Notes under the pieces: generated by a model
What the model saw: the letters and a program-made list of their open reading frames with translations, nothing else
Told to the model about the DNA's origin: nothing
The model's database searches: none
Shown: positions 33,520 to 49,215 of the stretch, one piece after another
How the letters are laid out: each line of letters begins with the position of its first letter
Position numbering within the stretch: position 1 is the stretch's first letter
Made by a program: the position numbers and the translations under genes
Assembly: GCF_021130785.1 (NCBI RefSeq)
Contig: NC_060213.1
Location: 66,817,001-66,881,000 of the forward strand
DNA: 64,000 nucleotides
DNA from: Homalodisca vitripennis
Lineage: Eukaryota > Arthropoda > Insecta > Hemiptera > Cicadellidae
Direction: 5' to 3'

Positions 33520-33888
33520 AGTAGACCTTGCGCCCTTTGCGGACCGCGCCCTGATTGGTCGAGAGGGGGTCACGTGATCCAAGATGGCGGCTAAGCTCCG
33601 CCCCCTGCGGGAGAAATTCCCTCATGTGCGGGAGAAATTCCCTGCTCACACTCTTATCCTAGTGTTTTGGGGTGATTTGGGGTGTCAAAATCGGTGTTTT
33701 TCGGTAAAATCGGTGATTTTGGGTGTCAAAATTGTTGTTTTTCGGTAAAATCGGTGATTTGTTGGGTCCGGTGAGGGAGAGAAACGAGGGACGGAGGGAA
33801 TTCCAACATGGCTGCGCCCATGTATCACGTGATCAAAAAAAAAAAAAACCATTATGGCCGCGCCCACGTAAACATAACCTCACTTTCT
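33520..33888 (+). repeat. Polinton left terminal inverted repeat
   Basis: Inverted match to 55021-55385 with only a few differences. It begins AGTAGACCTTGCGCCC and contains a CCAAT box (as ATTGGTC), two direct copies of GGGAGAAATTCCCT, a duplicated block ending TTTTTCGGTAAAATCGGTGA and two CACGTG palindromes. Confidence 0.95.
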
Positions 33889-34009
33889 TAGATGGAGGTG
33901 CCCGTGGCGCGCGCTGGCGGGAAAAATTCCCTAGGGTTCCCCTCACACTACAAAATAATTATTTATATATAATAATAATATAGATAAAAATTAAGTAAGA
34001 CGTTATCTG

Positions 34010-34133
34010 AGTGTGGTTGCGGAACACTCGTACTGTGTATGGAACACAGTACCCAGGTTAAGCATTACCGAGGTATAGGAGTCTGTCCAGTCTGAAACTG
34101 GTTGTCACTCCACGACCCGATAATGCCCCGTCC
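34010..34133. ncRNA. Structured element copy C (multi-hairpin)
   Basis: Shares unpaired blocks with copies at 48374-48520 and 49066-49212 (GTGTGGTT, GGAACAC, CCCAGGTTAA, CTGGTTGTC, TCCCTTG) while its stems differ. Stem 1 is GAGTGT/ACACTC, stem 2 is GTACTGTG (34030-34037) with CACAGTAC (34045-34052), stem 3 is GCATTA (34062-34067) with TAATGC (34121-34126), and an inner CCAGT/ACTGG hairpin (34087-34101) is kept. It lies about 80 bp 3' of the stop of the RING gene, so it may be a 3' untranslated element on the minus strand. Strand and function are inferred. Confidence 0.6.
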
Positions 34134-34215
34134 CTTGGAAAGTGAATTTTTGAAACCAATTGAAGAATTTAAAATGGAAAGTGAATTTTGAAACCAATTG
34201 AAGTTAGAGCTGGAG

Positions 34216-36494
34216 TTACCTCGGGAGGTATATGTTGAACCTCCCCACGATTAACGCTCGGCACGTGGGACATGTGTGTACTCTGTCGGCACAGGTCCGA
34301 CAGAGAGTATGACCGCACAGCCGAAGAGCAACCGTGGGAAGATTCACCATACACACAGGACACTCAACTTTACGCGGCTGTGACAGAGGTGTCTCCTCGG
34401 CGTCCGGGGGTGGAGGAGTGGTGTTATTACGCCTGGCATCCTCCATTCTTTCCCCAACGGATCGTAGGAAATTCTCCAAGTCCTCACGAAGCTCCCGCCA
34501 AGTTTGCGGGGCGAGTCTGATCTGTCGCCTATGGTCGGTATCTAGAAGGATGCGACTGGCCGTCCATTGCAGCTCCCGCATCAGTACTCGGATACTGTGG
34601 AGGGCCGCAATACATTCCCGCGCCTCCCAATCACTGACCCTGGGCTAAATCAGAAGAAGAAGAAGAAAGATTACATCACTTGTAAACAAGTCATAATGTA
34701 CAATTCGAGTAATTCAATACCGCGTACCGTAGGCCGAATTTGTGGGAGCTCCGGTGACGGAGGTATTGAGGGGGCGTACTCTGACGACGATAGGAGCGTA
34801 GAGCCAGACTCCGTTGACGATCCGCCGGCCGGTGAGAGGCCTGAGAGGCCATCATGGGGTGGTACCGGGGAGGGCGGGCGAGTCGGAGGAGTGGTTGACG
34901 GTGCGACAGAGGGATTCGCCACTTCCACGACCCTGGGCTAAAACAGAAGAAGAAGAAAGATTACATCACTTGTAAACAAGTCATAATGTACAATTCGAGT
35001 AATTCAATACCGCGTACCGTAGGCCGAATTTGTGGGAGCTCCGGTGACGGGGGTATTGAGGGGGCGTACTCTGGCGACGATAGGAACGTAGAGGCAGACT
35101 CCGTTGACGATCCGCCGGTCGGTGAGAGGTCATCACGGAGTGGTACCGGGGAGGGCGGGCGAGTCGGAGGGGTGGGTGACGGTGCGACAGAGGTGTCTAC
35201 GGAACGGCGCCTCTGAGAGGTGTCATAGCTGTTATCGTCACTGCCCGCAGGCAGTGACCATCCCCAAACGCCTGTCCTCTGAACAGCTGCAGACTGTGAT
35301 TGAGACAGCAATGCAGGCTGCAGTGAGCTGATCTGTACATATACATACACCCTCAGATATGCTATTTATCACACATCCGTAAATTGTACTTTCAATTGAT
35401 GGAACTAACCCTTTGATCCAGACTAGTTTCATCCCAGACCTCCTGCGGCTCGTTCAGGCGATCCAGCAGTTCCGTGATCTCCCTATCGTGCTCTTGACTC
35501 TCCGCCCGGTCAAGAGCCTCGACAAGGTCGGACTCTGCAAACATCTGTAAAACACGAGGAGAATCATCAGTGTACGCCGCTAACCGTTCAAATATCGGTA
35601 CATAGATGAGAGAATGGTTATTACCTGCCCAAGATCCTCGTCACAGAACTCCATGTAGTCCTCCACACGTCTCTTACAAAAGAAAACAAACCCGTTAGTC
35701 ATAAATTCCTTAAGGTAGTACATACGTAAAGTGTAACACGTAAAATATCACAGTAAAACTCACAATAGGCCTGAAACGGTGAGGAGCCAACGAAAAGACA
35801 TCCTCTATCACGCAGATAGGTCGCGCCGTCTGCAAATAATACAGAGGATATAAAAATTGAAAAAAACCTGTCATATGACGAAAAAAAAAAACAACATTAG
35901 TACTATTTTACGTACCGTAGTGGGAATGGGTACCGGCTCACTGCGGGGTCTGGCGGGGTCCTAAAACAATATTTATAAGTTATGCGATACATGTGCTAGA
36001 CAACAACAACAACAACAACAACAACAGAAAACAAACACGAAACAAACACTCACTTCCTGACCTCTGCGAGACCACCCGCTCACCGACCAACCTCCACGCG
36101 ATGTCGATGGTCGAGTCTGCAAATAATTCTGTATCAGTAATAGATTTCATTAAAGTGTAGGGATAACGGTGTTGGATATAAACGTACCAAGTCTATGGCT
36201 CCATCATCGTCCCCTGTCCAACCGTTTGTAGACGCCGTCGAGGGTTGTTCCTAAACATTAATCGAACATTACTAAATACATCAGTAAAACAGTATAACAT
36301 TTACATGAAATTATTACATGACTTACGTCTTCACTGCCGGCTGATACCACACTCAGGAGTGCGAGAATCAACAGCAATACTGTAGTGTTCCCGATCCTGG
36401 CTCTAGGGGCACAACACAGTACTCCCAGCATGACCACGAACATGGTGGTGGCCATGAGGAAGCAGACTATGGCTAAACGTTCACAGTCGGACAT
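34216..36494 (-). CDS. Ten-exon membrane-anchored RING-finger protein
   Basis: Exons: 36327-36494, 36188-36250, 36054-36116, 35916-35960, 35764-35829, 35625-35672, 35410-35544, 35018-35332, 34728-34937 and 34216-34644; 513 codons. All nine introns (71-93 nt) are GT-AG and in phase 0. Exon 1 encodes two hydrophobic segments (residues 8-27 and 39-52), predicting a membrane hairpin. The middle is Ser/Pro/Thr-rich. Exons 8 and 9 are a recent duplication (PPSPELPQIRPT in both). Exon 10 has an IAP-like C3HC4 RING (VECPVCMVNL, CGHTLCRTC, CPTCRALI) at the extreme C-terminus, so it should act as a membrane-bound E3 ubiquitin ligase. Start chosen at the ATG 34 bp after a TATA box. The exon chain is my reading of splice signals; no transcript was available. 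Confidence 0.75.
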
Positions 36495-36527
36495 GATAGG
36501 AAAGTGCAGGATACACACGCGTCCTCT

Positions 36528-36536
36528 GCTTATATG
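36528..36536 (-). promoter_or_regulatory. TATA box of the RING gene
   Basis: Minus strand CATATAAGC, about 34 bp before the ATG at 36494. Short leader and TATA spacing match the other genes of this element. Confidence 0.65.
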
Positions 36537-36631
36537 CAGCCGGACCGCATCCTGTCACATGTGCTGGTACAAGGTGAACTTCGTTCCACACCACCCATGA
36601 GGTCAGGTCTTAGGCGCGTTCTTTTTGTTAA

Positions 36632-36725
36632 CCGAGAGCATCCCCAGTAGGCCTAACCTCTCGGGTGATGAGCCCCAACCATCGCTCATCACAGGTGGTA
36701 GCCATTCCATGACAAATTTGCTACC
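36632..36725. other. Three consecutive hairpins
   Basis: CCGAGAG (36632-36638) pairs with CTCTCGG (36658-36664). GTGATGAGC (36665-36673) follows without a gap and pairs with GCTCATCAC (36684-36692). GGTAGC (36697-36702) pairs with GCTACC (36720-36725). The block lies between the 3' end of the gene at 37115-37564 and the RING gene promoter. It has the same position type as the structured copies near the integrase but no clear sequence match to them. Confidence 0.5.
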
Positions 36726-36965
36726 TCCCAACATATTTTTTTGTACCTCACCAATGACAGGACTTCTCAACTCAATGCCGAAACCCTGTCTCTCGGTGAG
36801 ATACGTTTTATTTTATACTTTATTTTTTATTTTTTTTTATCCTCGCGAGTGTAACAAGTAACTTTACTCGGAGAAGCCTTTCAATGTAACTCGTAAAACA
36901 CTCGCAAAGACTTTTTTTATTTTTTATTTTTATTTATTTTACAGCATCTAGAGCGAGGTACATAC
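36726..36965. other. AT-rich intergenic DNA in the Polinton
   Basis: T-rich stretches with no gene. A TTTTATTTATTTTACAG acceptor-like sequence on the plus strand near 36942 leads into short, quickly closed frames, so no exon is called. Confidence 0.4.
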
Positions 36966-37114
36966 CCCTGGACTTACGGAGTTTAGGCCTGCCATAGAGG
37001 TATCTGTCACACACATACACACACACAACTGCTCCCGGTCTTACGGAGTTTAGGCCTGCCGTAAGAGCAGTTGAAAGCCCCAGGACTTACAGAGTTTAGG
37101 CCTGCCTTAGGAGC
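36966..37114. repeat. Three copies of a ~33-bp motif (left cluster)
   Basis: Copies at 36966-36998, 37034-37066 and 37077-37114 share CTTACGGAGTTTAGGCCTGC with few changes. In the middle copy CTTACGG pairs with CCGTAAG. Four more copies occur at 50282-50471 near the other end of the element. Both clusters are between genes. Confidence 0.8.
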
Positions 37115-37564
37115 TTACCACTCACTCACCCCGCCCCGCTCTAGAGCTTTTTTCAAAGCACAAGCATAAGTGAAGCCACTATTATGTTGAGGCAGAATAC
37201 AGTGAGTATCGGAAACGATAGTCACCTTACTATCTACAATATTTCTATCAACTACGTTATTATGAAAATTAGATAAAAATTCAACTTTTTCTAACCCCTT
37301 AGTATATACAGTGACAAAGGGTTTACACAGAGCTCGTATAATCCCCTCGTCGTACTCTATACCACCCTCCTCCCACTTGATGTTGTGAAAGTGGCGCTCC
37401 AGCCACCGAGCGGTTCTGGCCATTTTAGAATTTAACTCCCCCTTATCGTATGGAGGCTTGAATACGATGTGTGCACGAAAGAGATGACTGATTATTACAA
37501 ACTCTTTTACAATAAATCGATTGTCATTATCTTTAAAAGCGTGAAACTCAACTATCGCCTCCAT
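37115..37564 (-). CDS. Unknown protein, possible RNase H-fold nuclease
   Basis: About 149 residues from the MEAIVEFHAF start; the frame extends 8 codons further to 37588, and the choice between the two is open. Features visible are an N-terminal strand with Glu (AIVEFHAF), a basic RTARWLERHFHNIKWEEGG segment, VYTKGLEKVEFL and a C-terminal H-x(7)-C-A-L-x-K-A stretch. I recall similar proteins in arthropod mobile elements, and the spread of acidic residues and the His/Cys tail suggest a DEDD-type exonuclease fold, but I cannot show catalytic residues. Its start overlaps the end of the upstream gene, so translation is probably coupled or from nested transcripts. Confidence 0.55.
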   Translation of the reverse strand: MEAIVEFHAFKDNDNRFIVKEFVIISHLFRAHIVFKPPYDKGELNSKMARTARWLERHFHNIKWEEGGIEYDEGIIRALCKPFVTVYTKGLEKVEFLSNFHNNVVDRNIVDSKVTIVSDTHCILPQHNSGFTYACALKKALERGGVSEW

Positions 37565-38123
37565 TTGGCCACCGTTTGAAAAGTTCAATTTCGAGAGACA
37601 GCCTGTGAGCTATGTGACTAGGGAGGAGGTCACTGTCACTGTTTTCAATTGCGGTTTTAACAGGCTCCTCAATCAAGAACAGATCTCTCAATACGATGTG
37701 CATCAGTGGGATGTTGGCAGTGAACTGATTCCACTCGTGTTTGTTAAGCGTTAATGAATGTTCACCGTCGTAGATGAACACACATTGCTTACCAAATACA
37801 TTGATGACCTTGATATCCTCCCCACCATCCGCCTTTACGTAAAACCTATGTGAGGTCTCCAAGGCTAGACTAATGCTATTGAAGTGTTGTGAAAACTCAT
37901 TAAACACATCGAATGACCAATAAACGCAACCCTTTTTACCCTTAAACAGTATTCCGAGAGAGTCACCCCGGTTTTTAACAAAACCCACAATCACACACTT
38001 TGAAAGATCACAATCAATAAAGTAAACAGACTTAAGAAAAATTCCCGTTAACGAGTTTATAGGCTCCTTGCGTCTTGGGATCCTCGTAGGCTCCAGGTCC
38101 ATAGCCGTTGATGGGTCCTCCAT
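37548..38123 (-). CDS. Unknown protein with two PC4-like halves
   Basis: 191 residues; ATG at 38123 lies 45 bp after a TATA box, which supports this start. Two halves look alike: GILFKGKKGCVYWSFDVFNE near residue 57 and KVINVFGKQCVFIYDGEHSL near residue 105, the second followed by LTLNKHEWNQF. The pattern (strand, short turn, aromatic strand, L-T-x-x-x-W helix) resembles the ssDNA-binding PC4/p15 coactivator fold. If right, it would bind single-stranded DNA or act in late transcription. This is a pattern judgement, not a search result. It overlaps the following gene by 17 bp. Confidence 0.55.
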   Translation of the reverse strand: MEDPSTAMDLEPTRIPRRKEPINSLTGIFLKSVYFIDCDLSKCVIVGFVKNRGDSLGILFKGKKGCVYWSFDVFNEFSQHFNSISLALETSHRFYVKADGGEDIKVINVFGKQCVFIYDGEHSLTLNKHEWNQFTANIPLMHIVLRDLFLIEEPVKTAIENSDSDLLPSHIAHRLSLEIELFKRWPNGGDS

Positions 38124-38167
38124 GGTCTCGGTCTCGGTCTTGTATGACCGTACCTTCCACAGTACCC

Positions 38168-38227
38168 CTTATATACTTTTAAACCTCCAAATTAAGACCA
38201 ATCAGAGACGAGTTTATTCCGACCAAT
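38168..38227 (-). promoter_or_regulatory. TATA box plus double-CCAAT upstream element
   Basis: Minus-strand GTATATAAG at 38168-38176, 45 bp before the ATG at 38123. Upstream, 38196-38227 contains two inverted CCAAT boxes. The 32-bp element recurs with two mismatches at 54843-54874, upstream of the polymerase gene. Confidence 0.7.
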
Positions 38228-38828
38228 GAGATTTTTTAGCAGGTGGTGCTTCCCCCTCCACCTTCTCCTCCCGTTCGTATGTGAGAGGATCTATCAAAAA
38301 AGAGACATAAATTGTGTCACAATCTCTCACATCCCAGACGTCGCGATGGGATGTTAAATTAGCACAGTCAATGGATCTACACCCTTTAAATTTTCTGTCC
38401 TTGAACAAGCAAGCGTATACTCCGGCTTTTATACCCTTTTTATACCCATTCAGCTTCACATCATCCTCTCTGCAAAATCTAACCCTAATTCTGTCAAAAC
38501 CCGTCACATCATACAACGCGCTATTAGGTGTGAAATTAGCACAGTCGAGGTATTTACATATCTTCATCTTGCCGTGCTTCCACAAGGAAGTGTACACTCC
38601 GGCTTTTATACCCTGCCTATACCTATTTAGAGCCTGTTTAATAGGACTATTCTCATCATCCGTGTCGTAGGCCTCGGGCTCATCGTTTACCTCAAAACGA
38701 AGTTCAATTTTGGTAAAGTCCTTAACATCGTAAAAGTCGGTATAGGATGTAAAATTAGTACAGTCGAGGTGTCCCAATATTTTCCTCTCTTCTTCTTCCT
38801 TATAACCGCGAATGTATAACCGCGCCAT
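38214..38828 (-). CDS. Three-repeat protein, possibly beta/gamma-crystallin-like
   Basis: 204 residues if read from the Met at 38828. The frame is open to an upstream ATG at 38867, but a TATA box at 38885-38894 would place the transcript start just past that ATG. Three repeats of about 45 residues share the pattern VY-x(6)-K-x-K-x(3)-LDCANFT-x(6)-DV-x-x-FD-x-I-x-VRF; the second reads GVYTSLWKHGKMKICKYLDC. Spacers between them are acidic or Lys-rich. Alternating strands and the repeat size recall beta/gamma-crystallin motifs. No enzymatic residue is apparent. A structural or particle-associated role is only a guess. Confidence 0.6.
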   Translation of the reverse strand: MARLYIRGYKEEEERKILGHLDCTNFTSYTDFYDVKDFTKIELRFEVNDEPEAYDTDDENSPIKQALNRYRQGIKAGVYTSLWKHGKMKICKYLDCANFTPNSALYDVTGFDRIRVRFCREDDVKLNGYKKGIKAGVYACLFKDRKFKGCRSIDCANLTSHRDVWDVRDCDTIYVSFLIDPLTYEREEKVEGEAPPAKKSHWSE

Positions 38829-38884
38829 CGTTGCGAGAGTGTTCAACACTGGGTAGGTAATGTACATCGGCGTAGGAGTCGCTC

Positions 38885-38894
38885 AATTTATACC
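38885..38894 (-). promoter_or_regulatory. TATA box of the three-repeat gene
   Basis: Minus strand GGTATAAATT, about 57 bp before the Met at 38828 and only 18 bp before the ATG at 38867. It therefore favours the inner start. Confidence 0.6.
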
Positions 38895-38942
38895 TAACGA
38901 TCCCCACCACCACCACGATCCCCACCACCACCACCACCACTA

Positions 38943-40130
38943 TTACATCATACGTTTTACGTTACCGGTAAGCAGGGTGTACGCCATGTGGGAGTCATGC
39001 AGGAGGAGACAGTACGCCGTCGTGTTTGCCGGAAAATTATTTTTCGCCTCAAATTCCAATCTCACGTCTACTGGTCCCGACTTGATCGAATCGTTCTGTT
39101 TAGAACAATCAATCACATAGAGCGGTGCGCGGGACTTGAATTTTTCAAAATCAACGGTAGGCGCTCCCGGTTTCTGATAGTACGAGCTTTGGAATCTTGT
39201 AAACATCTCGTAAAAAATGCACAAGTCACCGTGGACATTGTCGTAAGGATAATATTGCGAATTCAAATACAGTCTTACATTTGTCAGGTCGCAACGGTCA
39301 AAAGAAGACGCATCCTTTTTCAGATCATTTTTTCTTCCTGTCTGAAATGCCAAAACAACGTAGCGGGGTTTCTCAATTTGAGAGCTCGTTTTTATCGTCC
39401 AACTCTGACGAGTCGTTTGTGGTAAAGAGGGGTATTCGTGAATTTCCCAGGACCGAAACGGCAGGTGAATCAGAGTATCTTTCTCAATAACACGCAATAA
39501 TTTCAATTTGTAACTGTCGGATACAGTAATGTGTGGAACACGCCAGTAGAGCGAGGTTATTTCAAAGTCGAGGTTAACCGCATCCGTGCTTTTGACCGCA
39601 TTAATGTCGGTAGCCGACCTCAAGATAATCAGTTCCTGTCTGACATTGACCACGATCTTTTTATAATCCTCGGCAAAACCCAGCAACAGTTTTAGAGGCA
39701 CTGAATATGTAAATTCACTGGCCTGACCGGTTTCACCCGGACCTAGCCAACATGCATTCAAGAGACCAGCCTCCTCCTCTTTCCTGATGGAAATCAGTCC
39801 TTTGATTGTACTTGTAATACCTACATTTTTCACCCTGTCAACCTCTATACCACCGATCTCGTACCTTATATCGTCGAATAAAAATGCAATAGCGTTGTTT
39901 ATTAATGTAACACTGGCCGCGGCCCCATCTGCCTTCTTGGCACGCACTTTTCCGCTGATGTGTAAACTGCTTTCGAACGGTGCTGTAATTATATCCTGTT
40001 GACTGATTGGAATCCTGATTTCGTCGTTATTCTTTAGAGTTGACGAGGCGTACGGTTTGTGAGAGTGAAACTCCCAACCGGTTATCGCCTCATCGTACTC
40101 GACGGCCGATTCTATCGATAGCAGAGCCAT
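38943..40130 (-). CDS. Major capsid protein (double jelly-roll, Polinton type)
   Basis: 395 residues, beta-rich, in the late cluster next to the minor capsid protein and protease, which is the standard Polinton order. Recognisable stretches are NNDEIRIPISQQDIITAPF near residue 34, FEITSLYWRVPHITVSD near 190, RLYLNSQYYPYDN near 296, and PLYVIDCSKQNDSIKSGPVD, the last part of a conserved C-terminal block. The family forms pseudo-hexameric capsomers and is the main evidence that Polintons are virus-derived. The assignment rests on position and remembered family patterns. The frame is intact, and the start overlaps a small upstream frame (40090-40242). Confidence 0.75.
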   Translation of the reverse strand: MALLSIESAVEYDEAITGWEFHSHKPYASSTLKNNDEIRIPISQQDIITAPFESSLHISGKVRAKKADGAAASVTLINNAIAFLFDDIRYEIGGIEVDRVKNVGITSTIKGLISIRKEEEAGLLNACWLGPGETGQASEFTYSVPLKLLLGFAEDYKKIVVNVRQELIILRSATDINAVKSTDAVNLDFEITSLYWRVPHITVSDSYKLKLLRVIEKDTLIHLPFRSWEIHEYPSLPQTTRQSWTIKTSSQIEKPRYVVLAFQTGRKNDLKKDASSFDRCDLTNVRLYLNSQYYPYDNVHGDLCIFYEMFTRFQSSYYQKPGAPTVDFEKFKSRAPLYVIDCSKQNDSIKSGPVDVRLEFEAKNNFPANTTAYCLLLHDSHMAYTLLTGNVKRMM

Positions 40131-40242
40131 ACTTAAAACCCAGCGATCTAATAAACTTGATGTTCTTAGGTGTTAACACCGCGGTCTTTTGTGATCGAAT
40201 GAGGGGAACGGTGTACGGCACTTCTCTAAATACTAGGCCCAT
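40090..40242 (-). CDS. 50-residue protein between the capsid genes
   Basis: A short frame starting MGLVFREVPYTVPLIRSQKT, then AVLTPKNIKFIRSLGF, ending in a basic tail (RIGRRVR). It overlaps the end of the minor capsid gene by 10 bp and the start of the major capsid gene by 41 bp, so the overlap pattern of the late cluster continues through it. The balanced composition and the hydrophobic IKFIRSLGF stretch look like a real small protein, perhaps a capsid-associated peptide. Too short for a firm call. Confidence 0.5.
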   Translation of the reverse strand: MGLVFREVPYTVPLIRSQKTAVLTPKNIKFIRSLGFKYGSAIDRIGRRVR

Positions 40243-40913
40243 TGCCGTTTCCTTATGTGTATACGTAACGATAACGGTTCGTTTCTAAAGTTTATCAATT
40301 CACCGGTCTGGTCTTTGAGAGAGACAGCTATATTGTTCACCCTACGGACGTTCACAGGTAAATAGATGACTGTGCTCGGTTTCTCGACTATTTTATACCC
40401 TGGAGCGACTTCAGGGTAAAACTCATGCAGCACGTGTCCTTCTACACCGTTTTGAAAGGATCCTCGGGCGATATTACACTCAACACGTATCGTGTTTACC
40501 GTCATAATACTGACGGGGAGGTCGGACATGTGGACTCTATTAGGCTCGAGCATTTTCGCGGTGAAACCTAGTACAGGAGCTAGGGATCCCGATATTTCGA
40601 AATGTATCGCTTCACTGCACGATACTTCGGACCTTAGAGTGTTATTGTTTGCCTTAAGACTGAACGTCACGCCTCCGTCAATGTGCGACTTGATATATTC
40701 TTCGATGTTTTCAATTTCGTACGACCCTTCATCTATTACTATCTCTTTACCGTTTCCGTAGTGAAACTTGTCATTTACACCCTTTTCAATGTTCGGAATT
40801 GTATAGTACGTGGACAGGTCAATTAGGCCGATTTCGTACTCCCCATCGCTCAAATCCATTGGTGGAAAGACCTCACAAGATACGTGCGGGGCCACACCGC
40901 TAAGTGAAAACAT
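40233..40913 (-). CDS. Minor capsid protein (penton-like, single jelly-roll)
   Basis: 226 residues from the ATG at 40913. The sequence is strand-rich: YEIGLIDLSTYYTIPNIEKG near residue 26, SYEIENIEEYIKSH near 63, and VIYLPVNVRRVNNIAVSLKD near 180, typical of the Polinton minor capsid protein that forms pentameric vertices. It lies directly after the protease gene (14-bp overlap) and before the major capsid gene, as in known Polintons. The frame is intact. Confidence 0.7.
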   Translation of the reverse strand: MFSLSGVAPHVSCEVFPPMDLSDGEYEIGLIDLSTYYTIPNIEKGVNDKFHYGNGKEIVIDEGSYEIENIEEYIKSHIDGGVTFSLKANNNTLRSEVSCSEAIHFEISGSLAPVLGFTAKMLEPNRVHMSDLPVSIMTVNTIRVECNIARGSFQNGVEGHVLHEFYPEVAPGYKIVEKPSTVIYLPVNVRRVNNIAVSLKDQTGELINFRNEPLSLRIHIRKRQWA

Positions 40914-41232
40914 TATTTGCTAGAAACTTCAAACACAAGTGTCCGCAGACTACTGAGTCATCAGACTGTTTACGCTCATAGTTATACTGTACACTGACAC
41001 CGGACCCAAAGTAAGATACGAGTTCTACCGGCGGTCTCAGATTACCAAAACTGTCAAAGTAGTACACTCTATTTCCTAGTTTCTTATAACAGACCCAGTG
41101 CGTTCCTTCACCTCGTGAACTGTCCAGATTTACTATGGCCGACTCGTACAGCCGCGGGGTCTTGGGCAGTGTGTCCCTCATGTATACACCTCGAAAGTTC
41201 GGAATATCGAGTAACCTCGCGTAACGGATCAA
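40900..41232 (-). CDS. Adenain-like maturation cysteine protease, no ATG at its start
   Basis: The visible frame gives 110 residues with the catalytic set of adenovirus-type proteases: His45 (GTHWVCY), Asp60 (YYFDSFGN) and Cys96 (VVCGHLCLKFL). It would cleave capsid precursors during particle maturation. The first usable codon at 41232 is TTG, yet conserved-looking sequence (IPIKPLTNHELIRYARLL) continues upstream without an ATG to a run of 11 A at 41274-41284, where the phospholipase frame enters. The N-terminal part is therefore either reached by a frame change from that gene or separated from it by a miscalled base. Confidence 0.8.
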   Translation of the reverse strand: MIRYARLLDIPNFRGVYMRDTLPKTPRLYESAIVNLDSSRGEGTHWVCYKKLGNRVYYFDSFGNLRPPVELVSYFGSGVSVQYNYERKQSDDSVVCGHLCLKFLANNVFT

Positions 41233-41827
41233 TTCGTGGTTTGTTAGAGGTTTTATCGGTATCGAGATTGTTGTTTTTTTTTTTACAACACCTCTTCCTT
41301 TTCCTCACCCCACCACCACCTCCCCTCTTTGGGTAAGGTTTCAGGTAGAGACCTCGCCCTTTTGACTTACCCCTCCCTCGCTTTGTCTTTGTTTTTTTCT
41401 TTCTCCCACCCCCAAACGCTGTTTTAGCTTTCATGGCCGCAGTCACTGCTAAGGCCGCAGCCTTTTCTCCTACACTAGCGTCTCCTGATTTCACCCTTTG
41501 CCAAGCTCTTCTGGCCAATTCTTTGTCGGCCTCTCGCCGGTGTTCCAAATCCGTATATTTCGAGTACGCTATATCGTGGATTCTACAGAATTCGTCCAAC
41601 TTATTAATACCCTTATCGCCACGTGCAAGTCTCTCAGACAACCTGGTGCCTGGCCCACAGTACCGAAAACCCCCGGGGAGGTGTAACTCAACTGGTAAAG
41701 TGTCAACAGCACGATTTATTATGGTGCCTACAGCGGGCAGTGCGTTTCTCAGCGCGCTGGTCACTATACCTCTGCCCCGCTTGACAGCTCGTTTCACTCT
41801 GTTTGATTTACGCTTGTGATTCGCCAT
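41108..41827 (-). CDS. Phospholipase A2-domain protein (parvovirus VP1-like)
   Basis: The frame runs 239 codons, but only about 180 look authentic. Residues 1-25 are basic. Residues 50-95 hold the phospholipase A2 core: calcium loop YCGPGT (56-61) and catalytic CRIHDIAY with the His-Asp pair at 84-85. An Ala-rich helix and a Lys/Arg/Gly-rich tail follow up to the A11 run at 41274-41284; beyond it this frame is the protease N-terminus read out of phase. In parvoviruses and adintoviruses this domain is carried by the particle and breaches the endosomal membrane. The start ATG lies inside a TATA-like sequence (41825-41836), so it may be read from the transcript of the upstream metalloproteinase gene. 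Confidence 0.85.
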   Translation of the reverse strand: MANHKRKSNRVKRAVKRGRGIVTSALRNALPAVGTIINRAVDTLPVELHLPGGFRYCGPGTRLSERLARGDKGINKLDEFCRIHDIAYSKYTDLEHRREADKELARRAWQRVKSGDASVGEKAAALAVTAAMKAKTAFGGGRKKKTKTKRGRGKSKGRGLYLKPYPKRGGGGGVRKRKRCCKKKNNNLDTDKTSNKPRIDPLREVTRYSELSRCIHEGHTAQDPAAVRVGHSKSGQFTR

Positions 41828-43367
41828 TTATATACCGTATCACTTTATACAACTGTTTGAGTAGCGATTCACGCACACAAGTAATCTGCAGTACGTCGAA
41901 GATGTCCGCCTCGGATTTCGTGACAGTACCGGTAAACTCGTCAAACTCCAGCACGTAACTGTCTGTTATAAAGTAAATACGACCGTTTATATACCTGAAT
42001 CCACCCTTTATAGATCCTGGAACACCTGGGAGTACGCTTGAGGTCATCCCTAACATGGTGCCTGTGAGGGTGCATTCGTTCAACTCTACGACAAACTTGT
42101 CATCGACAAAGAAGTAGGTCTTACCCATATTACTGTTTAACGCTGCATTGACTTTCTTAATTCTGTTATGTACGATTCTGCTAATGGGTCTTTGATTGGA
42201 CAGTCTAAGTGACGGGTAATCTATAACGTATAAAGTCCTGTCCACAATCATGACTACGTCTCCGTCCGGTCTCTGGTACACGGCTGAGACATTATTAAAG
42301 TTCGACGGTAAGAACGTCAACCACTCTGTAATTATCAGAGGATTGGTAAACTCTTCACGCGTTCTATGGGCTTCGTTCAGGCTGAGTATCCAAACGTATT
42401 TACCGTAAAACGCGTACAGTCTGTTTCTCACTACTAAGAACGTGTTGAGTTTGTGCCGTAAATTACAAATGTCCAATTCTGTAGGTGTAGGCGTGGTAGG
42501 CCTAGTGGTAGTTGATGTTGTTGTTGTCGTAGTAGTAGTGGATGTTGTAGTGGATGTTGTAGTGGACGTGGAGGAGGAGGAGGAGGAGGAGGGGACAGGC
42601 GGTCCGTACAAAACCTGAATTGCAAGCTGATCGTCTCTGTCCAAATCAAATTCGTACAAGTTGTTGATACCCGATGGCTGGTAATAGGACGGAAACATTA
42701 CGGATCGTAACACAGACGAATGCTGAAGACCGAGAGCATGGCCTATTTCGTGGACCATCACTGTAAAGAACGAAGTCTTCTCCGGTGCGGGTATATTCAT
42801 TGTAAAGTCCCAGTCCTCTTCGAAATCAAGGTGTATATCCGATTGGTTCAGCCACGGTCGAGGGAGAAAAGCGTGGCCGAGAACACCGCCCGGACCGTCA
42901 AAATCGTAACTGCAAGTGCTTTTAAGGTAGTACGCCACGTGTTTCTTAGGGGAAATCACTACCATTATAGTGGGATTACTGTAACTTCTACGGAATTCGA
43001 GAGCAGAGTGCTTGGAGTACAAGGAAAACGCTCTCTCAACGATGTTGGCATACTGGATGCCAGAGCCAATCATGTTCCACGTGACCCGAGTTGAGTTCCA
43101 TTTAACTAATGGGTTCACGGAAAACGGGGCTATGCCTTCGTCCGAGTTACCGCATCTGGGTGTGTCCATCAGCTTCAGCGTCTCCTCGTTTTCATATCCG
43201 GTCACCTGTAGTCCGAACGTCTCCTGAAACCTCGTAATGGCGTTCTTAATATTGTTAGTCAGCGATGTTTCGTTGCTGTTGAGATAGCCGTATTTCTCCA
43301 AGTACAACAAAGTTTTATTAGCAGCTATCAGAGGAGCTACACACAGAATTAATACCGAGAACCGCAT
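41808..43367 (-). CDS. Secreted matrix metalloproteinase (M10A)
   Basis: 519 residues in MMP order: signal peptide (1-16), peptidoglycan-binding-like prodomain (about 20-68), cysteine switch PRCGNSD (70-76), catalytic domain with zinc motif HEIGHALGLQH (206-216) and Met-turn SVMFPSYY (222-229), a Ser/Thr-rich hinge (about 258-290), then a four-bladed hemopexin-like C-terminus. No furin site is obvious after the prodomain. It would be a zymogen that digests extracellular matrix once activated. A TATA box at 43414-43422 and a short leader support the start. It overlaps the phospholipase gene by 20 bp. Baculoviruses and entomopoxviruses carry MMPs; capture from an insect host is likely. All key residues are present. 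Confidence 0.95.
   Translation of the reverse strand: MRFSVLILCVAPLIAANKTLLYLEKYGYLNSNETSLTNNIKNAITRFQETFGLQVTGYENEETLKLMDTPRCGNSDEGIAPFSVNPLVKWNSTRVTWNMIGSGIQYANIVERAFSLYSKHSALEFRRSYSNPTIMVVISPKKHVAYYLKSTCSYDFDGPGGVLGHAFLPRPWLNQSDIHLDFEEDWDFTMNIPAPEKTSFFTVMVHEIGHALGLQHSSVLRSVMFPSYYQPSGINNLYEFDLDRDDQLAIQVLYGPPVPSSSSSSSTSTTTSTTTSTTTTTTTTSTTTRPTTPTPTELDICNLRHKLNTFLVVRNRLYAFYGKYVWILSLNEAHRTREEFTNPLIITEWLTFLPSNFNNVSAVYQRPDGDVVMIVDRTLYVIDYPSLRLSNQRPISRIVHNRIKKVNAALNSNMGKTYFFVDDKFVVELNECTLTGTMLGMTSSVLPGVPGSIKGGFRYINGRIYFITDSYVLEFDEFTGTVTKSEADIFDVLQITCVRESLLKQLYKVIRYINGESQA
41825..41836 (-). promoter_or_regulatory. TATA-like sequence overlapping the phospholipase start
   Basis: Minus strand GGTATATAAATG includes the ATG of the frame at 41827. 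A transcript started from it would begin downstream of that ATG. The same arrangement occurs at 45356-45366. Confidence 0.45.
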
Positions 43368-43411
43368 CTCGCCAGGTTCTAAAGTAAACTGACGGTAAAA
43401 ATGTCAACAAC

Positions 43412-44332
43412 CTACTTATATCTCGATCTCATCACCCTGCTCACCGGGTCTCTAAAGTATGGGTTGACAATGTTGAACCTGATCCACTCGTCTTTATCGG
43501 TTAAGTGTATAGCGTCCAGCGGCGGAGCCAGTAGTTTGTACATACCGTAATAGACTTCGCTCAGTACTCTCACTAGGTAATTCACGGTCACCGCGTCACT
43601 CATGTCGGTAGGATCTCTCAGATTAGTGATTTTACCGGTTTGCGCGTTCCAATCTTGCACCGCTCTGGTCATGGCGTGTTTTTGAAAGTATTTGAGATTA
43701 ACAGCTTCACCCTCGTATAGAGGCTCTTCAATCTCGCTCAGACGCTTATGTCCAAAACTCCAATGCCCGTCTTTGCCCATTTGGGGTATACGACTATCTA
43801 CATACCGTTTAGTCGTAGCGTCCTTAGGCTCGACTGGCCATCCAACGCTGCGCAGTCTGAAATTATTGAAAGTAACGGTAGAATCTCTAATACTCTTCAT
43901 AGGTGTAAGAGTATGTAGTTGTGACAGAGTGACAGCGTCATTTAATCCTTCACCATCGCTCAGGTTGATTATTCTTCTCTTTTTAGCGTCTATTATCTCA
44001 GTATCGAACGTTAATGTTCTTTTATTTAGCGTTCGCAAATTGACGGCATCCGCTTCGTTCGTAGGGTTAGCTACGTTAGGTATTCTGTTATTTCTGGCAT
44101 CGAGTTTGAGTGTCTTGAGCATAGACCGGGTCATATCCGTTTTAGTGCCATTTAATTTCTTGTCCAAGGTCTGCAGGTTTATAGCGTCTAGACTCTGCTG
44201 GGCGTCGGCCACGTTACATAACCGCTTGCCCTTGATATCGTAATCACCGTCTACCGTTATGCGAAACCCGACCCCAGGAGGGCCTCTTTTACCGGTCTCG
44301 CCACCGGTGCGACCAAACTTGTCCACGCTCAT
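43412..44332 (-). CDS. Fibre-like protein with collagen-like start
   Basis: 306 residues. The N-terminus has a short Gly-Pro-rich stretch (GGETGKRGPPGVGF), then about six degenerate repeats of 40-45 residues with the pattern (I/L)-x-N-(V/L)-x-(D/N)-P-x(4)-DA-V-x-L-x(2)-L, for example IPNVANPTNEADAVNLRTL. Such repeats form trimeric shafts in phage and adenovirus-like fibres. The C-terminal part (EVYYGMYKLLAPPLDAIHL) may form the head. It would sit at the particle vertices and bind cells. A TATA box 33 bp before the ATG (44365-44375) supports the start. The frame is intact. Confidence 0.7.
   Translation of the reverse strand: MSVDKFGRTGGETGKRGPPGVGFRITVDGDYDIKGKRLCNVADAQQSLDAINLQTLDKKLNGTKTDMTRSMLKTLKLDARNNRIPNVANPTNEADAVNLRTLNKRTLTFDTEIIDAKKRRIINLSDGEGLNDAVTLSQLHTLTPMKSIRDSTVTFNNFRLRSVGWPVEPKDATTKRYVDSRIPQMGKDGHWSFGHKRLSEIEEPLYEGEAVNLKYFQKHAMTRAVQDWNAQTGKITNLRDPTDMSDAVTVNYLVRVLSEVYYGMYKLLAPPLDAIHLTDKDEWIRFNIVNPYFRDPVSRVMRSRYK
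43414..43422 (-). promoter_or_regulatory. TATA box of the metalloproteinase gene
   Basis: Minus strand GATATAAGT, 47 bp before the ATG at 43367, with an initiator-like GTCAGTTTAC about 30 bp downstream. It lies at the very end of the fibre gene. Confidence 0.65.
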
Positions 44333-44364
44333 TTTGAAACTGTAATCTAAGAGAACATCCTTTA

Positions 44365-44375
44365 CTTTTTATACC
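44365..44375 (-). promoter_or_regulatory. TATA box of the fibre gene
   Basis: Minus strand GGTATAAAAAG, 33 bp before the ATG at 44332, overlapping the end of the preceding frame. Confidence 0.7.
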
Positions 44376-45322
44376 AATGCTCTATACCTGGAATTTCCTC
44401 TACCACGGATGAGTTTCAACTCCCTCAACTCTTCCACGATGTTTATAATTTCGTTTTTATGACCCGTATTACCCGCCTCAGCTGAACCTATTAAAACCTT
44501 TAATCTCTCACACAATTCATTCGGATCGTCGTAATACACGGGATCAGGGTTTGACATGTCCTTGAAGCCTTTGCCCGAGTAAGCTTTGGGAAATAGTTTT
44601 GAAATGACAAGTTCGTATTTTGTCGATTTGTTACGGTTTATGGTACTTTTATAATTGTAACCTCTTTTGTGAGCGTGTGTCCTGTTCAATATATCCTTGT
44701 AAGTGACCAAATCAGTTTCATCGTAATGTAACGGTGCGCGTTTAAAGACTAATTCGTACAGACCTTTCGTAGGTTTGTAGTACACATCATCTATGACTAT
44801 ACTGCCGTTACTATCGAAATTTAACACTTTGTTTCCAATCATTAGTGTGCCGTTATCATAGCGTGGTCCGTATATGGAATCAATCTTTCTTTGACTGGGA
44901 ATGTCCTTCATCAGTGACTTCATGTACTTGACTGTAAGTGCATTTTGGAATGTGTTTTCCACCCATTGTGAAGCCTCTAGTTGTCCTTTAGCGGTGGAAA
45001 GGATATCGCTTGCTTCGGGTAAAGGTGGATCACTAGTCTCCAGCACTTCGTCGTCCTGTAAGTAAGCGGGTACTCTCGGAGATGATGTTACAGCGGGAGA
45101 GAAGAGTTCCTCTTTTATCTCCTGCTGCTCTTCCTCAGGTTCGATTTTTATATTTTCGGAATTCTTGGTTTTCTTTCGCAGTTCAGACAGGAGTGGTTTG
45201 TACTGGTTTTCCAGACGTATCTCGGTAGACAGAGTCCCTTGTTTAAACTCCTTATACTTTCGCCTGATGGCCGTTCTCAACTTTGATATCTCAGCTGTAA
45301 GCTGTTTCTCGTTCCGCTCCAT
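44369..45322 (-). CDS. Conserved Polinton protein of unknown function, coiled coil plus C-terminal domain
   Basis: 317 residues if read from the Met at 45322; an upstream ATG at 45358 is part of a TATA sequence. Residues 1-70 are helical and highly charged (MERNEKQLTAEISKLRTA), a likely coiled coil. An acidic linker follows. The C-terminal half has a compact domain with DNGTLMIGNKVLNFDSNGSI, GLYELVFKRAP and NRTHAHKRGYNYKST. I associate this last pattern with uncharacterised proteins next to integrase and ATPase genes in arthropod Polintons (possibly the DUF8207 group, not checked). It probably works in particle assembly. The frame is intact. Confidence 0.6.
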   Translation of the reverse strand: MERNEKQLTAEISKLRTAIRRKYKEFKQGTLSTEIRLENQYKPLLSELRKKTKNSENIKIEPEEEQQEIKEELFSPAVTSSPRVPAYLQDDEVLETSDPPLPEASDILSTAKGQLEASQWVENTFQNALTVKYMKSLMKDIPSQRKIDSIYGPRYDNGTLMIGNKVLNFDSNGSIVIDDVYYKPTKGLYELVFKRAPLHYDETDLVTYKDILNRTHAHKRGYNYKSTINRNKSTKYELVISKLFPKAYSGKGFKDMSNPDPVYYDDPNELCERLKVLIGSAEAGNTGHKNEIINIVEELRELKLIRGRGNSRYRALV

Positions 45323-45485
45323 TTTTATCAATGATGTCACCATCTGTCCGTTTAACATTTATATACGCTTTCCTCATTTGCTCAAAAACATGTGATACAT
45401 CAATACCTCTGCACTCATCGTATCTTGAAACGAAATGAACCTTCACTCTGTCGTCAAATCTTACCTTCTTCTTGTTTGGCTCCAT
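45291..45485 (-). CDS. Short PPP1R15 (GADD34)-like PP1-binding protein
   Basis: 64 residues from the ATG at 45485. Residues 5-19 read KKKVRFDDRVKVHFV: an RVxF docking motif for protein phosphatase 1 (KVRF, 7-10) followed at the correct distance by the V-x-V-H-F segment of PPP1R15 proteins. A later FEQMRK (34-39) sits where that family has its conserved aromatic-Glu-Gln helix. Family members recruit PP1 to eIF2-alpha and keep translation running under stress; herpesvirus ICP34.5 and African swine fever virus DP71L are short viral versions. It overlaps the next gene by 32 bp. No promoter of its own was seen. Assignment by motif only. Confidence 0.7.
   Translation of the reverse strand: MEPNKKKVRFDDRVKVHFVSRYDECRGIDVSHVFEQMRKAYINVKRTDGDIIDKNGAERETAYS
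45356..45366 (-). promoter_or_regulatory. TATA box for the 44369-45322 gene
   Basis: Minus strand GTATATAAATG. It lies inside the PP1-binding gene and 34 bp before the Met at 45322. Confidence 0.6.
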
Positions 45486-45526
45486 ATTGCACACTGACCG
45501 AGTCCGTGTTGAGTTGACACTTTTAA

Positions 45527-46663
45527 CTACGGTAGTTCGACTTGTCTGAAAAACATTGCGCGTTTCTTGTGTTTTCTAAGGTAGTGTATAATGTCACCAA
45601 GTGACGCTACCGTACCCAGTTTCCTGAAGTAGACTGATCTCGGTATTTGCACTTGCGCTCGTGATCTAAATACAAACGTTCTCTTCCATCCGTCTCTCCA
45701 CTGCGGGATCTCGGCCACCGTGTACTTGTCATTCTCTACCGTCTTATCCATGTACTCTTTTAACCGAGCGATAGGGTTCCTCACCCTACCGTGTATATGG
45801 ATCAGGTATGAGTTGAGTAGCCAGAACTCACAAGGATTGGCTCCTGTAAATCTCCTCCACGCCTCAAACTGATCACGGTTTGTAATACTATACACTCCGT
45901 CCGTCAGACTTATTCCGAACATTTCACAGTACATAGGGACAGTTGGTAAGGCCACCTTTAGAAATTCTGAAGTAAAGAGGCTCTGGCACAGATTATTTAC
46001 AGCCGCAAACTCTTTGTTTCTCTCGCCTCTCGGTAGTCCACGTGGGGTCGGCCCGTACGCCACGTTATAGCTGATGTCGCTGTAGCATTTCGAGGCCAGT
46101 GCTTGTCTGTAGATTGTAACGGGTTTCCTAATAGGTATAGTTCGCTCCGTGAGAATGATGCAACGTGAGGTGTGTGGGACTTTACAAGCGTACTCCAACA
46201 TCTTTATACAGACTTGGGCAAAGTATATACCGCCGTGTGCGTTTCTCAACGGTACAAGCTTACCGAATTGGTCTGGAAACGGTCTGAATCGGGACAAGAG
46301 GTTCTGCGATTCCCGCACAGTACACTTTAACATGTCTTCGTGGTATACAACGAGTTCAAACGGTACACCTTTCTCCTGGCTCTTTTTCAAAAATTCTATC
46401 CAGATATCGCGGTTATAAAACCGTTCGCTGGACGAAATCATTAACAGAATTACAGGAGGAATGGTTGCACTGTACTGTCCTTGGCGTTTGTGTCTCCAAC
46501 ACCTTCTATTGAAAAGGAAACCGTGTGGTGGTCGTCTGCTACAGTAATTACCGCAAAATTTTTTCTTGTCCGGGTAGTACCACGTACACAGATTTGAGTT
46601 GACTTTGTGGAGTCTCTGGTCCGAGAACCCTCTGATGTCGTTATAAGTGTAGATCCTCACCAT
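45527..46663 (-). CDS. Glycosyltransferase-like protein (GT14/core-2 branching type)
   Basis: 378 residues. A Cys/His cluster at 26-57 (C26, C37, C41, C55, H58) suggests a zinc site. From residue 70 the pattern is glycosyltransferase-like: hydrophobic strand VILLMISS, WIEFLKKS, VVYHED near 106-110, then a helix (FAQVCIKMLEYA) and the strand CIILTERTIPIRKPVTIY (168-185), which matches the L-S-E-x-x-I-P block of core-2/I-branching beta-1,6-GlcNAc transferases. A downstream WRRFTGANP region also fits. It might modify fibre or host glycans. No membrane anchor is visible, so cytosolic or nuclear action cannot be excluded. Its ATG overlaps the stop of the ATPase gene (TAATG). Confidence 0.5.
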   Translation of the reverse strand: MVRIYTYNDIRGFSDQRLHKVNSNLCTWYYPDKKKFCGNYCSRRPPHGFLFNRRCWRHKRQGQYSATIPPVILLMISSSERFYNRDIWIEFLKKSQEKGVPFELVVYHEDMLKCTVRESQNLLSRFRPFPDQFGKLVPLRNAHGGIYFAQVCIKMLEYACKVPHTSRCIILTERTIPIRKPVTIYRQALASKCYSDISYNVAYGPTPRGLPRGERNKEFAAVNNLCQSLFTSEFLKVALPTVPMYCEMFGISLTDGVYSITNRDQFEAWRRFTGANPCEFWLLNSYLIHIHGRVRNPIARLKEYMDKTVENDKYTVAEIPQWRDGWKRTFVFRSRAQVQIPRSVYFRKLGTVASLGDIIHYLRKHKKRAMFFRQVELP

Positions 46664-47385
46664 TATAGATCTTGAACAAAACTGTCTATTCCTACTCGGT
46701 ACCTCCCTTTATCAATGTCATCGTCCTTGCTAATGACGATAAAACCGTGTTTGTCCTTCCACGCCATACTGCACAACTGTTTGAATTTTTCAAATCTCAT
46801 ATCGGTATTGACGTGATCACTGTAAGCGTGGTGTAGATTCATATCATCTTGTTTAAAGAGTATTATGAAATTTGCATTGTCTCTGACCAGCTGTTTCGGT
46901 ACGTGACTGTAGGTTTGACCGAGATAGAATGTATCTACGTTCTTGTGCCTCCCCATAGCAAAGTAACTGCGGATATTGCCGTGCTTTTCGCAAGCTATAT
47001 CGTCAAAAATCATCAAAGAGTTTTCCTTAGCCTCGTCCGGTTTAATGACCAGGGAGCTATCGTCGTACGCGAAATACCCTACTTCCTTCGGTATCATTTT
47101 AGCCAGTAATTGATACTTTGGTTGGTATAATGACTTTGAAAATACGTACACATTCTCGAATCGTAATCCGTTCGGATCGGTGATCAGATTGAATAACACG
47201 TTTGTTTTACCACAGTTTGAAGGACCTACAATTAAACCTCTTATCGAGTCTGGTAAAAGCGGACCGTTTTTGTTTTTGCGACTTAAACCGCTACCTATAT
47301 ACTCGTCCATGTTGTGGACGTTAAACGTCGTGGCTTGCTTTACGAGCTTCATTTTGGTAATGACGGTTCCACGGTATTGCATCAT
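46663..47385 (-). CDS. DNA-packaging ATPase (FtsK/HerA type)
   Basis: 240 residues with Walker A GPSNCGKT (54-61), Walker B LMIFDD (124-129) and a later LGQTYSHVPKQLVRDNANFI segment with the sensor-type Gln. It would pump the genome into preformed capsids. Length and motifs match Polinton ATPases. The start could be the ATG at 47385 or the adjacent one at 47382. It lies 10 bp downstream of the integrase stop and overlaps the next gene, so the three are probably co-transcribed. Confidence 0.92.
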   Translation of the reverse strand: MMQYRGTVITKMKLVKQATTFNVHNMDEYIGSGLSRKNKNGPLLPDSIRGLIVGPSNCGKTNVLFNLITDPNGLRFENVYVFSKSLYQPKYQLLAKMIPKEVGYFAYDDSSLVIKPDEAKENSLMIFDDIACEKHGNIRSYFAMGRHKNVDTFYLGQTYSHVPKQLVRDNANFIILFKQDDMNLHHAYSDHVNTDMRFEKFKQLCSMAWKDKHGFIVISKDDDIDKGRYRVGIDSFVQDL

Positions 47386-47395
47386 GTTTTATAAT

Positions 47396-48328: not shown

Positions 48329-48360
48329 TTTGTAAATGAAGAAAAAATAATCTGTATACC

Positions 48361-48370
48361 GGTATTTATA
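48361..48370 (-). promoter_or_regulatory. TATA box of the integrase gene
   Basis: Minus strand TATAAATACC, with an identical copy at 49051-49062. Both stand immediately downstream (minus strand) of a structured repeat. Confidence 0.75.
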
Positions 48371-48373
48371 TTC

Positions 48374-48520
48374 GTCTAAGTGGTGTGGTTTGGAACACCT
48401 ACATCGAACACTAGCATGCTCGATGCCCAGGTTAAACAGTATTTGATTTTGAGGACCAGTCCAGAAGTAACTGGTTGTCGCCCGGTGATCAAATACTGTC
48501 CCATCCCTTGTTGCTTAGAC
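48374..48520. ncRNA. Structured element copy A (cloverleaf-like)
   Basis: A 147-bp block closed by GTCTAAG (48374-48380) and CTTAGAC (48514-48520). Inside are GGTGT/ACACC, CATCGA (48402-48407) with TCGATG (48420-48425), and a perfect 12-bp stem ACAGTATTTGAT (48436-48447) with ATCAAATACTGT (48488-48499) enclosing CCAGT/ACTGG. Copy B is nearly identical; copy C keeps the loops but changes the stems. It covers the stop of the zinc-protein gene at 48515 and precedes the integrase TATA box. It could be an RNA structure in the 3' untranslated region or a separate transcript; the strand is not known. Confidence 0.65.
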
Positions 48521-48886: not shown

Positions 48887-49050
48887 GATTGAGAATGAAG
48901 TGCTCTCCCACTACCACCACCACTGTCTCCACGATTACTCTCCCACCACCACCGACTCCCCCACTGAGACCTCACACTTTGCACAAATATAAGTGTTTAC
49001 AGTGATATCAACACTATATACAAGTTTATACATTTTTAATCTGTATATCA

Positions 49051-49062
49051 CCGGTATTTATA
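49051..49062 (-). promoter_or_regulatory. TATA box upstream of BC-box/zinc protein 1
   Basis: Minus strand TATAAATACCGG, part of the duplicated unit that includes structured copy B. The ATG is 165 bp further on, a longer leader than elsewhere in the element. Confidence 0.6.
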
Positions 49063-49065
49063 GCC

Positions 49066-49212
49066 GTCTAAGTGGTGTGGTTTGGAACACCCACATCGAA
49101 CACTCGCATGCTCGATGCCCAGGTTAAACAGTATTTGATTTTGAGGGCCAATCCAGAAGTAACTGGTTGTCGCCCTGTGATCAAATACTGTCCCATCCCT
49201 TGTTGCTTAGAC
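49066..49212. ncRNA. Structured element copy B (cloverleaf-like)
   Basis: Near-identical to 48374-48520, with the same closing stem GTCTAAG/CTTAGAC (49066-49072, 49206-49212) and 12-bp stem (49128-49139, 49180-49191). The inner CCAGT is CCAAT here, so that small hairpin is weakened. It lies directly after the stop of the gene at 49216. Confidence 0.6.
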
Positions 49213-49215
49213 GAT

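What the first reader, a model, noticed from the sequence alone, without database searches (positions are those of the whole stretch)
34216..36494. Ten-exon RING gene with every intron in phase 0 inside a mobile DNA element
Nine consecutive introns of 71-93 nt, all GT-AG and phase 0, join exons as short as 15 codons into one 513-codon frame with an N-terminal membrane hairpin and a C-terminal IAP-like RING. Standard single-frame ORF calling misses it. Such a densely intron-split accessory gene is unexpected in a Polinton and suggests modular exon assembly or capture of a host gene with its introns. I know of no described equivalent.
Basis: partly seen in the sequence, partly recalled or inferred. 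Interest (0 to 1): 0.9.

Follow-up and report, generated by a model that had tools for sequence, protein, structure and literature searches.

The report
Intron-rich RING gene in insect Polinton
A virus-like mobile element in a leafhopper genome carries a probable ubiquitin-ligase gene split by nine short introns, although such elements are described as intron-free, so making the protein should depend on the host's splicing machinery.

Summary
On the minus strand 36494-34216, ten exons join through nine GT-AG introns (71-93 nt), all phase 0, into 513 codons ending in a C3HC4 RING. The gene lies in a 21,866-bp Polinton with inverted repeats and target-site duplication TACATG. Protein matches place it in Homalodisca vitripennis or a close relative.

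Comparison supports splicing. Of 39 other near-identical copies, 25 keep the joined frame open, 24 of them with all 18 splice sites intact. One older copy (L091) keeps all eight non-duplicated introns; one distant copy (L092) has six phase-0 introns, the first and last at matching places. Intron 9 is a tandem copy of intron 8. No transcript was examined.

Best reading: an accessory gene with its own TATA promoter, spliced by the host, encoding a membrane-anchored RING E3 ligase, changing quickly and by exon duplication. Two surveys state that intact vertebrate Mavericks, or endogenous viruses, lack introns. Capture from a host gene has no support here. Target and activity are unknown.

The parts
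33520..55385 (.). Whole Polinton, 21,866 bp, with terminal inverted repeats of about 345 nt (339 of 350 alignment columns identical) and 6-bp target-site duplication TACATG on both sides
36529..36534 (-). TATAAG box 40 nt upstream of the ATG; also in L091 (-40) and, as TATAA, in L092 (-52)
36327..36494 (-). Exon 1: two hydrophobic segments (19-residue windows above 1.6 span residues 4-32 and 32-56)
36188..36250 (-). Exon 2 (21 codons)
36054..36116 (-). Exon 3 (21 codons)
35916..35960 (-). Exon 4 (15 codons; 25 codons in L091)
35764..35829 (-). Exon 5 (22 codons)
35625..35672 (-). Exon 6 (16 codons)
35410..35544 (-). Exon 7 (45 codons)
35018..35332 (-). Exon 8 (105 codons, S/P/T-rich)
34728..34937 (-). 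Exon 9 (70 codons), tandem duplicate of the 3' part of exon 8
34216..34644 (-). Exon 10 (142 codons plus stop): predicted helical stretch (low confidence), then C3HC4 RING (protein residues 466-499) and C-terminal tail
34938..35017 (-). Intron 8 (80 nt)
34645..34727 (-). Intron 9 (83 nt), near-identical copy of intron 8 (one substitution and a 3-nt insertion)
35333..36326 (-). Span holding introns 1-7 (36326-36251, 36187-36117, 36053-35961, 35915-35830, 35763-35673, 35624-35545, 35409-35333), all GT-AG and phase 0; positions kept in L091
50803..54595 (-). Family B DNA polymerase (DNA_pol_B_2), split between two frames in this copy
47396..48328 (-). Retrovirus-type integrase (rve) with chromodomain
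46663..47385 (-). Packaging ATPase (Pox_A32)
38943..40130 (-). Double-jelly-roll major capsid protein
40900..41181 (-). Weak adenovirus-type protease match (Peptidase_C5, E 0.0024, below Pfam's cut-off)

Best explanation
This is a genuine, spliced accessory gene of a multi-copy Polinton family. RNA polymerase II transcribes it from its own TATA promoter in the host nucleus, and the host spliceosome removes nine minimal introns. The product is a membrane-anchored RING-type E3 ubiquitin ligase: an N-terminal hydrophobic pair, a long S/P/T-rich linker, then a helical segment and RING. It most likely marks host proteins for removal to favour the element. Because every exon is symmetric (0-0), whole exons can be duplicated, lost or skipped without breaking the frame, and at least one duplication has happened. 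Shown: gene structure, conservation of introns and frame across copies, one intron gain by duplication, location in the element. Inferred: splicing in vivo, membrane topology, E3 activity, role against the host.
For: Structure. Forty copies match over the whole gene at 95-100% (40 scored of 114 candidates); 32 of these 40 show the repeat terminus beyond the stop, followed by 32 different 6-nt flanks, that is independent insertions. Of 39 copies other than the window's, 25 keep the joined frame open and 24 of these have all 18 splice sites GT/AG; 2 of 39 have a changed site. Indels present in 3 or more copies: 1 in exons (9 nt) against 18 in introns; single-copy indels: 39 against 20, in proportion to length (Fisher p = 2.2e-6, or 0.016 when intron events in simple repeats, picked by eye, are left out). 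L091, 82-85% alike, keeps all 8 non-duplicated introns at the same places; exon length differences are 9, 30 and 33 nt, while 6 of 8 intron differences are not multiples of 3; dN/dS is 0.545 over 443 codons. L092 has 7 exons and 6 phase-0 introns, the first intron before EQPST and the last 5 residues before the conserved W, as here; dN/dS over the last 98 aligned codons is 0.154 (dS 2.1, saturated, so rough). Sequence 364-634 nt upstream of the L092 start matches window 37134-36861 at 89%, so the gene sits in the same slot. GenBank predictions use the same exons: 3 of 26 window-type models keep all nine junctions. RING: PF13920, 33.8 bits against a cut-off of 27.
Against: No transcript evidence could be examined. 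Within the young family amino-acid changes are about as frequent as expected without selection (changes shared by 3 or more copies: 13 silent, 31 replacing; random expectation 2.6 to 1), and exons and introns differ equally (1.4% and 1.2%). 14 of 39 copies are broken. Indels found in exactly two copies include 4 in exons, 3 of them frame-breaking, against 7 in introns. L091 carries stops in exons 2 and 3, and its exon 10 has dN/dS 0.90 against the window. Most shared intron indels lie in simple repeats, which mutate fast. Older copies: one each was read. The model of exon 10 is poor (pLDDT 58.8). GenBank models differ in exon use and may be software output only.
Confidence: 0.72

Rival explanations
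1. A host RING gene was captured as genomic DNA with its introns already in place, and then diverged.
For: An intron-rich gene among genes that read as single frames is what DNA-level capture would leave; the first and last introns are shared by the two distant families, so some introns predate their split.
Against: No relative outside this family was found: all 38 protein hits are from H. vitripennis. At least one intron arose inside the element by duplication. The search for host relatives was shallow (7994 candidates scored; 150 of 619).
Confidence: 0.3
2. The gene began with few introns inside the element and gained most of them there, by tandem duplication or another process that favours phase 0.
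For: Intron 9 is a duplicate of intron 8 and is absent from L091. The two families differ in the number of introns in the middle of the gene, and all 12 distinct positions (8 plus 6, 2 shared) are phase 0.
Against: Only one gain is documented. Among all 36 pairs of the nine introns only 8/9 are alike (z 25.2; next best 2.3). Intron sequences of the two families are not convincingly alike.
Confidence: 0.35
3. The introns are not real: the pattern is a chance chain in a decaying element, or the RING exon alone is translated (121-codon ORF from an internal ATG).
For: Gene models in GenBank are predictions; the 34216-34581 ORF exists on its own; 1 of 200 shuffles reached the any-phase chain.
Against: Same borders and phase in L091 and two shared borders in L092; shared indels avoid exons; 0 of 200 shuffles reach the phase-0 chain.
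Confidence: 0.05

Closest known systems
Polinton/Maverick elements (adintovirus-type)
   Same: Integrase with chromodomain, family B polymerase, packaging ATPase, double-jelly-roll capsid, inverted repeats starting AG, 6-bp target-site duplication
   Different: Carries a ten-exon gene; intact vertebrate elements were reported without introns, in agreement with Kapitonov and Jurka (PMC8097293, passages)
MIB1 third RING and IAP RINGs (BIRC2, BIRC3, BIRC7, XIAP)
   Same: C3HC4 RING near the very end of the protein, the match running into the short C-terminal tail
   Different: No BIR, ankyrin or MIB domain in the Pfam scan; H-x2-C spacing as in MIB1, one residue less than in the aligned IAPs
Viral membrane-bound RING ligases such as the K3/K5 proteins of herpesviruses (recalled, no call)
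   Same: Viral accessory protein joining membrane segments and a RING
   Different: Those have an N-terminal RING-CH domain; here a C-terminal C3HC4 RING after an N-terminal hydrophobic pair
Polydnavirus genes of parasitoid wasps
   Same: Intron-containing genes in insect-associated integrated DNA viruses (PMC2646287, passages)
   Different: Different viruses; no gene comparison was made here

Membership tests
Polinton/Maverick | rve integrase | tested here: met
   PF00665 E 3.5e-10 with Chromo E 9.3e-6
Polinton/Maverick | Family B polymerase (DNA_pol_B_2) | tested here: met
   E 2e-36; frame broken in this copy
Polinton/Maverick | Packaging ATPase and DJR capsid protein | tested here: met
   Pox_A32 E 3.1e-8; DJR-like E 1.9e-109
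Polinton/Maverick | Adenovirus-type protease | tested here: inconclusive
   Peptidase_C5 E 0.0024, below cut-off
[quoted passage not shown]
   TACATG both sides; 32 of 40 copies show the terminus with different flanks
Polinton/Maverick | Genes without introns (reported, not definitional) | tested here: not met
   Nine introns in the RING gene; the listed core genes other than the polymerase read as single frames
RING-type E3 ligase | Eight zinc ligands in C3HC4 order | tested here: met
   C-x2-C-x11-C-x-H-x2-C-x2-C-x6-C-x2-C, residues 466-499
RING-type E3 ligase | Ubiquitin transfer | not testable with these tools
   No assay
IAP family | BIR domain | tested here: not met
   None in the Pfam scan at E up to 0.1

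The most novel reading that the evidence does not exclude
Some insect Polintons have turned an accessory E3 ligase into a cassette of symmetric phase-0 exons that is duplicated, lost and replaced as units, so that the protein's non-RING part diversifies far faster than neighbouring element sequence. The element thereby makes the protein only where the host spliceosome is available, breaking the reported rule that Polintons carry no introns.
Probability: 0.4. Interest if true: 0.78.

Novelty: new variant of a known kind. Interest (0 to 1): 0.62.

Why it matters
One survey of endogenous Polintons used a single-frame gene caller on the stated ground that endogenous viruses do not contain introns (PMC10120064, passage). 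A gene with nine introns, kept in many copies, means that such surveys can miss accessory genes, and it makes intron gain and exon shuffling inside a mobile virus-like element directly observable. It also points to nuclear transcription and splicing for at least part of the element's programme; virus particles of these elements had not been observed (PMC8097293, abstract start in search listing).

Tried and rejected
Chance chain of splice sites: rejected. The first shuffle run used cut-offs too strict to admit the real sites and was replaced.

Exons 2 and 3 as duplicates of each other (both 63 nt): best local match 9 nt. Similarity of intron sequences between the window gene and L092: none convincing (best z 4.1, window intron 3 with L092 intron 1, of 48 pairs).

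A target hot spot for insertion inside other Polinton copies seemed to appear; it was an indexing error in my script, and the corrected one search shows unrelated flanks.

Relatives in viral contigs: the capsid protein and the RING alignment gave none; the capsid in phage records gave none; records of the window's own genome may be left out of those collections. The model of exon 10 is too uncertain for a fold search. Selection within the young family is not detectable. The papers by Kapitonov and Jurka 2006 and Starrett et al. 2021 are not held, so statements on them are second-hand. One on fish intron insertions only names a Polinton repeat inside an intron (PMC3151243, passage). Passages only were seen of PMC8496328, PMC10120064, PMC12220804, PMC11071296, PMC12721341, PMC2646287, PMC8097293, PMC9683012, PMC11071308, PMC9952930, PMC3151243; term searches without a hit in PMC10328495, PMC4028283, PMC6035795.

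Full report
What is there. Exons are GC-rich (59%) and introns AT-rich. The protein starts with two hydrophobic segments in exon 1, continues with a long S-, P- and T-rich stretch, then a predicted helical stretch (low-confidence model) and a C3HC4 RING in exon 10 (PF13920, E 3e-8). A TATAAG box lies 40 nt before the ATG.

Surroundings. The gene occupies one end of a 21,866-bp Polinton (33520-55385) with inverted repeats of about 345 nt and the target-site duplication TACATG. The element carries integrase with chromodomain, family B polymerase, A32-type ATPase and double-jelly-roll capsid protein. These core genes read as single frames, except that the polymerase frame is shifted in this copy.

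Host. All 19, 34 and 23 hits of three protein searches come from Homalodisca vitripennis, at 61-99% identity, several over the full length at 88-96%, so the window is from that leafhopper or a close relative. The genome held here has 2.30 Gb in 14,901 contigs. The predicted proteins come from an annotation by Funannotate whose predictors were trained on RNA-seq (PMC8496328, passages); this is not proof of splicing at these loci. Of 26 window-type models, three keep all nine junctions; others skip, extend or lack exons (the 8 models of the distant type were left out).

Copies. Forty near-identical copies were scored of 114 candidates. Thirty-two of the 40 show the repeat terminus beyond the stop, each with a different 6-nt flank; for the other eight I did not find it in the stretch read. 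Of 39 copies other than the window's, 25 have an open joined frame and 24 of these have all 18 splice sites; two of 39 have a changed site, one by a base change and one by a deletion. Single-copy indels fall on exons and introns alike (39 and 20, for 1542 and 737 nt), but indels shared by three or more copies number 1 in exons (9 nt) and 18 in introns (p = 2.2e-6). Indels in exactly two copies number 4 in exons (3 frame-breaking) and 7 in introns. Many of the shared intron indels are in simple repeats; leaving out those, picked by eye, the shared fraction is 1 of 40 against 5 of 21, p = 0.016. This pattern is expected if exons were held in frame while the element was replicating and decay came after insertion. 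Amino-acid changes within this young family, by contrast, show no constraint, and exons and introns differ equally between copies, so selection on the protein is not visible at this depth.

Older relatives. A six-frame search with exon 10 scored 150 of 619 candidates: the 50 best rows cover at least 141 of 142 residues at 90-100%, several others lie at about 71-86%, and a large group is at about 59-64% over residues 42-142. Only two older copies could be read, so the next statements rest on one copy each. L091 has the eight non-duplicated introns at the same positions and phase, of 71-92 nt, and no exon 9; exon lengths differ by 9, 30 and 33 nt, introns by -1, 7, -7, -10, 1, -3, 14 and -9. Its dN/dS against the window gene is 0.545 overall (0.19-0.38 for exons 1 and 3-7, 0.70 and 0.90 for exons 8 and 10, and above 1 for the short exon 2); it carries two stops. 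Introns differ at 8.0% of aligned sites, less than silent sites (dS 0.20); part of this may be the many CpG in exons (118, against 19 in introns 1-8), but it is not explained. L092, of the distant group, has seven exons and six phase-0 introns; its first intron falls before EQPST and its last intron five residues before the conserved tryptophan, as in the window gene. The last 98 aligned codons show dN/dS 0.154, with dS saturated at 2.1.

Same slot, different gene body. A stretch 364-634 nt upstream of the L092 start is 89% identical to window 37134-36861, which lies 367-640 nt upstream of the window's start. A predicted fusion protein of the distant family (P0022) begins with a polymerase segment 79% identical to the window's over 146 residues. 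Yet the RING parts are about 62% identical and the middle exons do not align clearly. The RING gene therefore changes faster than its neighbours, or has been exchanged. Whether polymerase and RING lie together for the distant family genome-wide could not be tested.

Intron gain. Exon 9 with intron 9 is a tandem copy of the 3' part of exon 8, intron 8 and the first nine bases of exon 10 (introns 8 and 9 differ by one base and 3 nt). L091 lacks it. So at least one intron arose inside the element without breaking the frame. No other pair of the nine introns is alike. Counting L092, twelve distinct intron positions are all phase 0. About half of animal introns are phase 0 (recalled), which would make this unlikely by chance (about 2 in 10,000) if the positions arose independently, which is not known.

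Mechanism. From the anatomy I infer nuclear transcription from the gene's own promoter, splicing by the host, and a membrane-anchored E3 ligase that acts on host proteins. The RING is closest in sequence, among solved structures, to the third RING of MIB1. The match to MIB1 and IAP RINGs runs to the C-terminal tail, which is needed for activity in IAPs (recalled). Fast change of the gene body fits an arms race with the host, but no target is known. Splicing and ligase activity are unproven.

Known or new. A survey of vertebrate Mavericks states that no introns were observed in genes of intact elements, in agreement with Kapitonov and Jurka (PMC8097293, passages). A survey of protist elements used a prokaryotic gene caller because endogenous viruses 'do not contain introns', with one host treated separately (PMC10120064, passage). 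In Oxyrrhis PLVs splice sites were looked for in gaps and not found (PMC12721341, passage). Cryptophyte PLVs have group I introns, a different kind (PMC12220804, passages). I saw no report of a gene like this in ten searches of an open-access library (listed under Tried and rejected), which lacks most subscription papers. I file the element as a Polinton and the gene as a new variant: a spliced accessory gene built of symmetric exons.

Noticed in passing
41808-43367 (-): A single-frame matrix metalloprotease (Peptidase_M10 E 1.4e-31, with hemopexin and PG_binding_1 matches; best solved match stromelysin-2, 9.7e-31) inside the Polinton, without introns, in contrast to the RING gene.
   Followed up: partly
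51491-54595 and 50803-51540 (-): The polymerase reads in two overlapping frames, a frameshift in this copy.
   Followed up: partly
43412-44332 (-): Protein with phage T7 tail-fibre N-terminal and YadA-stalk matches (E 4.9e-15 and 6e-11), perhaps a fibre gene.
   Followed up: no
41108-41827 (-): Phospholipase A2-like domain protein (E 4.5e-11).
   Followed up: no
48358-48523 and 49050-49215: A 166-nt direct repeat, 95% identical, flanking a cysteine-rich ORF.
   Followed up: no
L091 against window 34216-36494: Introns differ less (8.0%) than silent exon sites (dS 0.20); not explained.
   Followed up: partly
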